A stretch of DNA of 64,000 bases. It comes from Patagioenas fasciata (Eukaryota > Chordata > Aves > Columbiformes > Columbidae). The position numbers were made by a program, and so were the translations under genes. The stretch is from positions 119,023,001 to 119,087,000 of the forward strand of contig NC_092520.1 of NCBI RefSeq assembly GCF_037038585.1, given 5' to 3'. Below, in pieces: positions 50,199 to 54,069 of this stretch (positions are counted from its first letter, which is position 1; each line of letters opens with the position of its first letter). The notes under the pieces are model-generated. The model had not been told where the DNA came from. It searched no databases and saw only the letters and a program-made list of their open reading frames with translations.

Positions 50199-53100
50199 AT
50201 ATCCTTTTTCATGTTTAGCTCTTCCAGACTAGATGCTACATTCAAGTACTAACAGGGCTCACCTGTTTCTAACTATAGCAATGGTGACACTAGGTTGTTT
50301 TAGAATGAGTGTGAAGATGTGATAAAGTATTCCTCTAACCTTTGTCTGTAGAAAGGCATATAGATACCCACTGAAATCATCTTTTGGCAATGTAACTGTG
50401 GCCATGTTAGAAATTTCAGTTGTGTTGCTGCATGCTGCAAGCCAATGGGAGGTCCTAAATGGGCATGTCCTAATGATCAGTTTCTTTTTAGGAAATTAAA
50501 AAAGAAAATTTTAAAAAATGCTATTATTAGGCTTGAAAGACATCTCATATGATAACTGGTGTCTGATTTTGTTGTCAGCAAAATCATTAACAGCTATTTC
50601 TGACCCCACAGAGTTCTTTCTGAGAGTTTTGCCTTTAACCTTTCTGCTGGAAATCTGATGTCATTGGCCTTGGATAAGAGTAGATCTCTACCAGAGTTAA
50701 CACCATAATGTGATGTGCATGACCTGTCCTGCTTTCATGAAGCTTACTGACGCTATTTGATTAGAGCTCTGATGTGCTCAGCAAGCAGTCTGTGCGGGTT
50801 TTGTTTTAAGGTCAGGTAGTAGAGCTTATTAAGCCTGACCTACTCCAGAAATTGTGATGCTTCTTGAGGAAAAAAAAATCAGTTTCTGAAAACTGATTTA
50901 TAAGGGGTAGAATGGGATATTTGATATAATAATAATGAACATATAATTCTTCATCTTAAGCGATAATATCTCAACTGTCTTGTTATATACACACTGTACA
51001 GATTTGTCTGATATATGTCTGCATAATGGTAACCCTTCAGGTATAAGGGGAAGATGTGCTGTGATGCTTCAATATTCAGTCTTCCAGTTCTACCATTCTA
51101 CAATCAATGTGGTCCAGAACCATGATTCCTTATTTGGCTTTTAGGCTACTGCCCATCCATAGTTCTAGCTGACCACATGCTGCTGCTGTGGTTTGTTACC
51201 TTGCTGGTGGGCTACTAATTACAGCTGAAATGCATTCAGATCCATTTTGTGAAATTATGCTTCTGAAGGAGCAATTGGTTCTTGCTGTTGCTAGTGCTTG
51301 TGCTCAGGAGGGTGCACGAGGCTGGGAGTGGCATTATTTTCTTGAAGAAAACAACAGAACAAACAAAATCCTTAAATTGTTATACAGTAATACAATTTAA
51401 ATTCTTTTCTCTTAGAAAAAATACTTCATGTTATGCAATACTATAGAAGCAAACTGTAAATTTGTGTTTTATTCTTCATAGATGGTTAGAACTCATAACT
51501 TAAATGTCAACATGGTTTTACTCCTGTAGCTCTGAAGTACCTATTACTACCTTTTTACAAATGAGGGGGTCCATGCAGTTGTGCATCGTCCTTTGAAAAC
51601 AAACAGAATACTTAGTTTCCAAATATGATACAGATAATGTGCATGGGCTCGTTCCGACTTTCAGCAAGCTGTCTCAGCCCCGCTGTCTGTGGTTATTTTT
51701 ACAACAGTTGAGGTATTGTACCACTTAGTATGTTCTTTCTAAATTGCAGAATCTGTCTGGTTGAAATGAAGCAGAAGGTCATGTTTAAGGAATAAAGAGA
51801 GAAAGTTGAGAAAACAGAAGTAATAATTTAATTTGAATTCACATTTCAATTTGGTCAATTATACGAAATAATGAAAAGTTGTTTTCTCTTGCATTGCTCT
51901 CATCTTCACCTTCTTCCACAATGTTGAGCACACGTTTTCATTTCAAATTTACTGAAATGTTTTTGTATGGCTACTTATAACAACAGAATGGGGAATCAAA
52001 AATTTGATTAACACAACTGCCAGAAAAGACTGAAAATGAGGCCCTGACAAGGGCCCTTGCCTGACTTCAGGTGAACAATATTCGGCTTCTTCCTCTCCTA
52101 TGGAGTGACTGTGGGTGCCTGGTTTCCTCAGCACCCATCAATGCCTCTTGAGTCAGGCACTGGGATTATCTGAGCGCTCTGTGGAAAGACAGGTTCTAAT
52201 TGTTGCTACAGTGGATGTTGCTGCTTCAGAAGCATGATCTGAGGAAATAGATCTGTTTGGGGTAGAATTTGGCTGAGTGTAGCAGTACATCCTCACGAGT
52301 TTTAGAGAGATGGTTTGTGTGGAGTGAATTAACAGCTGTTTTAAAAAAAAAATGCTGAGTTTTATATTTGGTGTAATGCCAACTGTCATGGAGAATAGGG
52401 TTGGTTTTTGTTGGATTTTTTTTTTTCATGGTTAGGGATTTTGTTTTGAGGGCAACCTTCCGACAAAGCAGGGTTGCAGCTGAAGGTGCAGCTGGAGTAT
52501 GTGTTTTGGTGCATTTGTCCTCCAAGTCAAGGGAGAACATCAACCAGCAATAGGTGTGGGTGGGAAGTGGGTCATTCCCTCAGGATTGCTTCATCCTAAC
52601 CAGGCTCCCAGTTTGCCTCTGGTGTTAATCACTTGTGGCTTGCTGTAAACACCATATTCTGTGATAAAGCCCATGGGAGACTGTTCCCACTGAGTCTTCT
52701 GGGCTACCTGGCTGCCGCTTGCGGGAGGCGGTCAAGAATGCGGTGAGCCCCAGGCCTCCCAGGAGCTGGGAATTGCCTGAGAAAGTTGTTGCTGCTCATT
52801 ACTTTTAACATCTCTGCCCTGTCTTGAGCCTCAAGTCCCTAGGCAGTGGTGCTGCCATTGGCTTTAGACCCTGCAATGCTGCAGGGAGCCCAGGATGCAG
52901 CCGTGTTTGCATGGAGAACAATGGTGGATGATGGTGCAGCCTTGACATGTCCATGGAGGTACCGATTGCCTACATATGAGCAGTGGAGAGTGCTACCACC
53001 TTTCTGTTTCAAGTGTCCTTGCTGTGCTCCTGCTGCCCACCCGCTTGGATTTCAGAGAACATTGTGCTGGCTCTCAGCTTTTGGAAGGACCAGGGATCTC

Positions 53101-54069
53101 TCTACCACCCCTGTTAGCACATGGTTTCTTTCTGTATCTTCTAGGGCGGTTGTGCACAACTGCCTATGCCTCAGGTACAGTTCAGTGTTTGTCTGCTGCC
53201 GGAGCAGTGATGAGGAGGGAAAAAAATACAACAACAACAAACACAACCAAACAATTCTATAACTGTATGAACACTCTAACTATTTAACACTACTGGAATC
53301 TGTTCCGCTGCTTCAGTTGCTGTATGAACTGTTAATTCACTAAGTGTTTGACGCTCTTCAAGTTTTACTTTCCCCTGGAAGATAAACTTGGTTTTCCTTC
53401 CTTTTGAAAGACTGAGCTGCTCTGATTGAGTTGGCTTTTACTCTAAAACACATCAACACAAGGATAGGAAATATATTTTGTTGTAGGCAGGATTTCTGCC
53501 TCAAAAGTACAGAAGTAACTAAGCTTGCTGAAAAATGCTTGTCTGCAAGTCTGAGCAGAAAATGTTGGTAAATATACTTTTCCTTAGAGTTGATGAAGTC
53601 AGGTACTACAGCCCTAAGTAAGTATTTCTGAATGTATTTTATGCTTTATTTAAAGATTGGGGGAGACTTGGGTGTGGGGGGGGGAGTGGGGAACCAAACC
53701 CAAAACATACAAACAAACAAACTTGAAAAACTAAGGCACACAATCTGAAAAGAATACCAGGTATATATCGCTTCCCTGCTGGCACTTTGCAGGGAAATGT
53801 GGCATGGAGTAAGATATTACCTCAAGGAGGCAAAGCCACAGTTGTGCTGTGGAAATGCAGCAGGAGTATCCAAAACTGACTGTTGAAAGGGGAGACCTGA
53901 ACTCTTAAATTTGCCTTGGTGTGATGTAATTGATGTTTTTCGGCACTAAAAGTGTTTTGTTTTCCAACCAACGTTGGTTGTTAGCGCATAAAAGTGTTTT
54001 TCATACATACTGAGTACAGAGAAGCCAAAGGATGTTTATTTTTTTTGATCCCTTAACAAATGACTTAAC
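50199..54069 (+). other. SLC9A7: SLC9A7 intron 7: U12-type AT-AC intron
   Basis: The intron begins ATATCCTTT (50,199-50,207), identical to the minor-spliceosome AT-AC donor consensus. It ends ...gacttAAC at 54,069. The likely branch site tcccttaac (54,049-54,057) differs from the U12 branch consensus at one position and lies about 13 bases before the end, within the normal 10-20 base range. There is no usable AG acceptor: in the frame of exon 8 a TGA stop stands at 54,061-54,063, and the nearest upstream AG is at about 54,029. From memory, U12 AT-AC introns have been described in human NHE6-type genes. The 3.9-kb body contains open frames (such as 52,846-53,262) that I cannot assign. Confidence 0.93.

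What the first reader, a model, noticed from the sequence alone, without database searches (positions are those of the whole stretch)
50199..54069. Intron 7 of SLC9A7 is a U12-type AT-AC intron
The sequence shows ATATCCTTT immediately after codon 323, a cttaac end, a one-mismatch U12 branch site 13 bases upstream, exact phase-0 joining, and no legal AG acceptor. AT-AC introns are among the rarest intron classes. I recall the human NHE7 protein carrying an N-A-N tripeptide where this gene encodes T-A-L; if correct, the human gene uses a different junction. Here an in-frame TGA at 54,061 would forbid a human-like extension beyond two residues.
Basis: partly seen in the sequence, partly recalled or inferred. 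Interest (0 to 1): 0.75.

Follow-up and report, generated by a model that had tools for sequence, protein, structure and literature searches.

The report
Ancient AT-AC introns in NHE genes
A pigeon ion-exchanger gene carries one of the rare introns with AT-AC ends, the same intron sits at the same codon in three sister genes, and it is predicted to be cut out by the cell's second, minor splicing machine; this kind of intron was already known in the human and fly versions of the gene.

Summary
The window holds exons 1-12 of SLC9A7 (NHE7) of a pigeon. Intron 7 (50199-54069) has the exact U12 5' splice site ATATCCTTT, an 8-of-9 U12 branch site 13 nt from the end, and an AC end. It joins codons 323 and 324 in phase 0. 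None of 120 nearby GT/GC-AG pairs restores the conserved TALVTKFTKL peptide. The class is not new for this gene: PMC2831892 lists an AT-AC U12 intron shared by fly Nhe3 and human SLC9A7, and PMC3564746 lists human SLC9A7 as a U12/U2 twintron. (2) In the same genome SLC9A6 and SLC9A9 carry both introns at the same codons; SLC9A8 carries the AT-AC one, with a U2-like intron at the other site; six plasma-membrane-type NHE loci have no intron at the AT-AC site. (3) The recalled N-A-N junction exists in a gorilla isoform; the pigeon lacks an AG there and has an in-frame TGA. (4) 54 of 120 listed public NHE7 models lack the AT-AC join. Removal by the minor spliceosome is inferred; no RNA reads were available.

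The parts
50057..50198 (+). SLC9A7 exon 7, ends ...GVVTAL (codon 323)
   Evidence: Open frame, AG acceptor, homology to NHE6/NHE9 solved chains
50199..54069 (+). Intron 7, AT-AC, 3871 nt, U12-type
   Evidence: same intron type at the same codon in SLC9A6, SLC9A9, SLC9A8
50199..50207 (+). U12-type 5' splice site ATATCCTTT (exact)
54049..54057 (+). U12-type branch site TCCCTTAAC (8 of 9), branch A 13 nt from exon 8
54061..54063 (+). In-frame TGA that would stop any 3' splice site extended upstream by more than two codons
54068..54069 (+). AC 3' splice site
54070..54175 (+). SLC9A7 exon 8, starts VTKFTKL (codon 324)
54859..57275 (+). Intron 10, GT-AG, 2417 nt, second U12-type intron of the gene (not in the finding)
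   Evidence: GTATCCTTT exact at 54859-54867; phase 0 join GAF|IAIF; same site in SLC9A6 and SLC9A9
57251..57259 (+). Candidate U12 branch site of intron 10, AACCTTAAC (7 of 9), branch A 17 nt from exon 11
   Evidence: a U2 control intron of the gene (intron 11) also reaches 7 of 9, but only 5 nt from its exon
54638..54744 (+). Intron 9, GC-AG (gcaagg...ccctag), 107 nt, major-type by inspection

Best explanation
Intron 7 of this pigeon SLC9A7 gene has AT-AC ends, the exact U12 5' splice site and a near-exact U12 branch site, and is predicted to be removed only by the minor (U12) spliceosome, joining codon 323 (CTG, L) to codon 324 (GTG, V). Shown from sequence: the signals, the phase, the lack of any legal GT/GC-AG pair nearby that restores the conserved peptide, the same intron at the same codon in SLC9A6, SLC9A8 and SLC9A9 of the same genome, and genes for U6atac, U12 and U4atac snRNA in that genome. 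Inferred: U11 and then U6atac would bind ATATCCTTT (U6atac AAAGGA against TCCTTT), U12 would bind the branch site with one mismatch, and the two exons would be joined. Inferred: the intron dates from before the split of the four organellar exchangers, with a second GT-AG U12 intron (intron 10) kept in SLC9A6/7/9 and now U2-like in SLC9A8. Inferred: making full-length NHE7 therefore depends on the minor spliceosome in pigeon, with no ape-like U2 bypass.
For: Signals and phase. 120 GT/GC-AG pairs tested around the junction: 12 give an open in-frame product, each using an AG inside exon 8 (54079 or 54088), none gives TALVTKFTKL. Solved NHE6 and NHE9 chains read straight through the junction, TALVTKFTKL and TALLTKFTKL. 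Same genome: ATATCCTTT...AC at the same codon in 4 of 4 organellar NHE genes (SLC9A6, A7, A9; A8); GTATCCTTT...AG at the intron 10 site in 3 of 3 of SLC9A6/7/9. Best branch-site match 7-9 of 9 at 11-17 nt in these 7 introns; 5-7 of 9 in 10 U2 controls. U6atac, U12, U4atac genes found. Columba livia record P0001 uses this join, as do 66 of the 120 listed NHE7 proteins. Print: AT-AC U12 intron shared by fly Nhe3 and human SLC9A7 (PMC2831892 Table 2); SLC9A9 minor-intron retention 85.4% in RNU4ATAC patients against 2.7% (PMC4667643 passages; the passages do not say which SLC9A9 intron).
Against: No RNA reads. 54 of 120 listed NHE7 models show another junction; I read these as pipelines avoiding AT-AC but did not see their evidence. 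SLC9A9 intron 7 and SLC9A7 intron 10 have only 7-of-9 branch sites, and U2 control intron 11 also has a 7-of-9 match, though 5 nt from its exon. Human and fly intron positions were not compared residue by residue here. The search for U11 snRNA did not complete.
Confidence: 0.95

Rival explanations
1. Pigeon also has a working U2-type alternative here (a twintron), using an AG inside exon 8.
For: 12 of 120 tested GT/GC-AG pairs give open in-frame products; one, GC donor 50193 to AG acceptor 54079, gives GVVT-FTKL, the exact junction of 12 UniRef-only models. PMC3564746 lists human SLC9A7 as a twintron.
Against: Each such product deletes conserved residues at or after the junction; the 12 models with GVVT-FTKL come from records without NCBI support in the listing and look like forced legal splice sites. 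An ape-like site (N-A-N) cannot exist: no AG between 54029 and 54077, and an in-frame TGA.
Confidence: 0.08
2. It is a U2-type AT-AC intron, spliced by the major spliceosome.
For: Such introns exist, e.g. in sodium-channel genes (PMC2831892 passages).
Against: Those have G at +5; here +5 is C, the 5' site is an exact U12 match and a U12 branch site lies at the right distance.
Confidence: 0.02
3. The AT-AC reading is an artefact of a pseudogene or assembly error.
For: None found.
Against: 514 open codons over 12 exons, near-identity to a public pigeon protein, same signals in three paralogues.
Confidence: 0.01

Closest known systems
AT-AC U12-type intron of Drosophila Nhe3 (CG11328) and human SLC9A7 (PMC2831892 Table 2, section 8 read)
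   Same: Same gene family, same intron subtype; the paper calls the two orthologous.
   Different: A pigeon case. The paper does not give the human intron number, so I did not verify position. The table does not mention a second U12 intron or the paralogues SLC9A6/8/9.
Human SLC9A7 twintron (PMC3564746 Table 1; parts 1 and 2 of 3 read)
   Same: A U12 intron in SLC9A7.
   Different: The human gene is listed with U12 (725 aa) and U2 (727 aa) variants. The ape-like U2 product N-A-N (gorilla P0122, one residue shorter at the junction) needs an AG upstream of the AC end; the pigeon has none. The text I read does not say which intron, and the two lengths differ by two, not one.
SLC9A9 minor intron retained in Roifman syndrome (PMC4667643 passages)
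   Same: Paralogue with the same two U12-type introns in pigeon; functional dependence on U4atac in patients.
   Different: Human SLC9A9; the passages do not say which minor intron.
A-type minor introns dependent on CENATAC (PMC8280824 passages)
   Same: Same subtype; 92% of A-type minor introns responded to CENATAC loss.
   Different: SLC9A genes are not named in that main text (0 occurrences).

Membership tests
U12-type AT-AC intron | 5' splice site ATATCCTTT | tested here: met
   Exact at 50199
U12-type AT-AC intron | Branch site close to TTCCTTAAC, branch A roughly 10-20 nt from the 3' end | tested here: met
   8 of 9, 13 nt
U12-type AT-AC intron | AC 3' end that keeps frame and protein | tested here: met
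   Phase 0, TAL|VTKFTKL as in NHE6 and NHE9 chains
U12-type AT-AC intron | Host genome has minor spliceosome snRNAs | tested here: inconclusive
   U6atac, U12, U4atac found; U11 search not answered (7 tries, last)
U12-type AT-AC intron | Removed by the minor spliceosome in cells | not testable with these tools
   No RNA data or depletion data for pigeon
U12/U2 twintron (PMC3564746 definition) | Alternative U2-type intron at the same place, ape-like (N-A-N) form | tested here: not met
   No AG between 54029 and 54077; in-frame TGA at 54061
U12/U2 twintron (PMC3564746 definition) | Any other U2-type alternative in use | not testable with these tools
   12 open in-frame pairs exist on paper; use needs RNA reads
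U2-type AT-AC intron | G at +5 of the 5' splice site | tested here: not met
   +5 is C
U12-type GT-AG intron (intron 10) | 5' splice site GTATCCTTT and U12 branch site | tested here: met
   5' site exact; branch site 7 of 9 at 17 nt, weak on its own; SLC9A6 9 of 9 and SLC9A9 8 of 9 at the same site

The most novel reading that the evidence does not exclude
The organellar Na+/H+ exchangers (SLC9A6/7/8/9) share an AT-AC intron kept since before they split, which acts as a minor-spliceosome gate on organelle pH control; apes opened a U2 bypass in SLC9A7 (the N-A-N isoform) that birds cannot use, so bird NHE7 output follows minor-spliceosome activity strictly.
Probability: 0.2. Interest if true: 0.5.

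Novelty: new member of a known kind. Interest (0 to 1): 0.33.

Why it matters
It places one AT-AC intron at the same codon in four paralogues of one genome, absent in six other NHE loci, beside a second U12 site that is U12 in three paralogues and U2-like in the fourth. That is a compact natural test of the claim in PMC2831892 that GT-AG U12 introns convert to U2 more readily than AT-AC ones. It also shows a practical fault: many public gene models get this junction wrong (54 of 120 listed NHE7 proteins; 42 of 120 listed NHE8 proteins with another junction and 11 not parsed), which puts false insertions or deletions into a membrane domain used in disease and structure work.

Tried and rejected
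Rejected: U2-type AT-AC intron (+5 is C); GT/GC-AG alternatives; an ape-like twintron site in pigeon. Led nowhere: a viral-contig scan for relatives found none; no tRNA or Rfam hits in the window; NHE7 with 'minor intron' found no papers; SLC9A8 with minor-intron terms gave 168 papers holding two of four terms, and none of the 8 listed holds SLC9A8. Paper searches run; they do not cover databases such as U12DB or supplements, so I do not claim that the four-paralogue set is unpublished. Not done: residue-level comparison with the human or fly gene, any RNA evidence, a U11 search.

Full report
WHAT WAS CHECKED. The finding's coordinates hold. Exon 7 ends at 50198 with CTG (codon 323); the next nine bases are ATATCCTTT; the intron ends ...TCCCTTAACAAATGACTTAAC at 54069; exon 8 starts GTG. 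I rebuilt the 12 exons present in the window (9654-58677); one search had wrong boundaries for some exons and one search is the corrected table. The product is 514 codons without a stop. Of the 11 complete introns, 9 are GT-AG, intron 7 is AT-AC and intron 9 is GC-AG.

GENOME. The whole-genome tool places the window at C1:119023001-119087000 of a 1.45 Gb genome. The nearest public protein is NHE7 of Columba livia, with a small signal-peptide difference, so I call it a pigeon; the species is inferred.

MORE THAN CHANCE. RTATCCTTT is found 3 times in 64 kb on both strands, 1.27 expected, 20 of 100 shuffles reach that. What is not chance is the placing: the two + strand copies (50199, 54859) both start at exon ends (P about 2e-8 from base composition for 12 exon ends). 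The 10 other donors match 1-5 of 8 motif positions. Branch sites of the seven U12-type introns examined match 7-9 of 9 at 11-17 nt; the 10 U2 controls match 5-7 of 9, the one at 7 lying 5 nt from its exon. So the branch sites of SLC9A7 intron 10 and SLC9A9 intron 7 (7 of 9) are weak on their own.

NO LEGAL ALTERNATIVE. Of 120 GT/GC-AG pairs (12 donors in 50150-50259, 10 acceptors in 53950-54129), 12 give open in-frame products; each uses the AG inside exon 8 at 54079 or 54088, and none restores TALVTKFTKL, the sequence that solved NHE6 chains show across this point (NHE9: TALLTKFTKL).

A SECOND U12-TYPE INTRON. Intron 10 (54859-57275) starts GTATCCTTT and ends ...AACCTTAACCCTCAGCTGTGAACAG, joining GAF to IAIF in phase 0. 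PMC6717393 (passages) gives 50 mouse and human genes with two minor introns, so this is uncommon, not unique.

PARALOGUES. In the same genome SLC9A6 (C14) and SLC9A9 (C12) carry ATATCCTTT...AC after VVTAL and GTATCCTTT...AG after GAF. SLC9A8 (C20; named by its hits) carries ATATCCTTT...AC after GLISAL, the same codon, and at the intron 10 site a U2-like intron (gtaggt...cag). Six other NHE loci (L036, L037, L038, L039/L040, L041, L042), which I take to be the plasma-membrane type from recall, read through the AT-AC site without an intron. Reading (inferred): the AT-AC intron predates the split of the four organellar genes; the second site has changed type in one of them. PMC2831892 reports that U12-to-U2 conversion is commoner for GT-AG than AT-AC introns (abstract passage), which fits.

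MACHINERY. U6atac (two hits, 126.8 and 57.8 bits), U12 and U4atac genes are present. The 5' end of U6atac holds AAAGGA, able to pair with TCCTTT; U12 holds TAAGGAA, able to pair with the branch site with one mismatch (sequences; pairing by inspection). U11 could not be searched.

THE N-A-N QUESTION. A query carrying the recalled junction found gorilla NHE7 isoform X2 (P0122) with [12 protein letters not shown]; it is the only one of 201 proteins fetched. Mammalian records in the same listings mostly read TALVTK. PMC3564746 lists human SLC9A7 as a twintron. In pigeon the codons before GTG are TGA CTT AAC, and no AG lies between 54029 and 54077, so that isoform cannot be made at this place.

PUBLIC MODELS. 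Twelve UniRef-only models read GVVT-FTKL, which is what a forced GC donor at 50193 with the AG at 54079 would give. For NHE8, by my sum, 67 of 120 listed proteins (of 1907 matches) keep the expected length at this point, 42 differ and 11 were not parsed. I infer that pipelines that forbid AT-AC introns cause this; I did not see their evidence, and some may be real isoforms.

LITERATURE. Fly Nhe3 and human SLC9A7: AT-AC, U12 in both (PMC2831892, section 8 and passages). Human twintron (PMC3564746, two of three parts). RNU4ATAC patients retain a minor intron of SLC9A9 at 85.4% against 2.7% (PMC4667643, passages). A-type minor introns depend on CENATAC (PMC8280824, passages). The intron is therefore a known kind in a known gene; the pigeon case and the four-paralogue comparison are my additions, not claimed as unpublished.

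VERDICT. Observation confirmed, interpretation supported, kind already described. Modest interest, from the paralogue comparison and the annotation fault.

Noticed in passing
window 54859-57275: Second U12-type intron (GT-AG, GTATCCTTT) in the same gene, intron 10.
   Followed up: yes
window 54638-54744: Intron 9 is a short GC-AG intron (CAG|gcaagg); SLC9A6 and SLC9A9 have GT there.
   Followed up: partly
SLC9A6 intron 8, G000:C14 near 21458430 (L017): A GC-AG intron (ACAG|gcaagc), where SLC9A7 and SLC9A9 have GT.
   Followed up: no
SLC9A8, G000:C20 near 1.0626-1.0640 Mb (L034): Intron at the same phase-0 site as U12-type intron 10 of SLC9A6/7/9 but U2-like (gtaggt...cag): a candidate type switch.
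   Followed up: partly
G000:C1:203046000-203046109 (L029): Second, weaker U6atac match (57.8 bits), perhaps a pseudogene copy.
   Followed up: no
window about 62369-62720 and ORFs near 30487-30960, 37454-37875: Sequence and ORF fragments that look like avian CR1 LINE copies (recalled, not tested).
   Followed up: no
P0123, P0124, P0125, P0127, P0201: Bird NHE7 models whose junction reads xLN-VTK, as if the last six bases of the intron (CTTAAC in pigeon) were coded: likely misannotation of the AC end.
   Followed up: no
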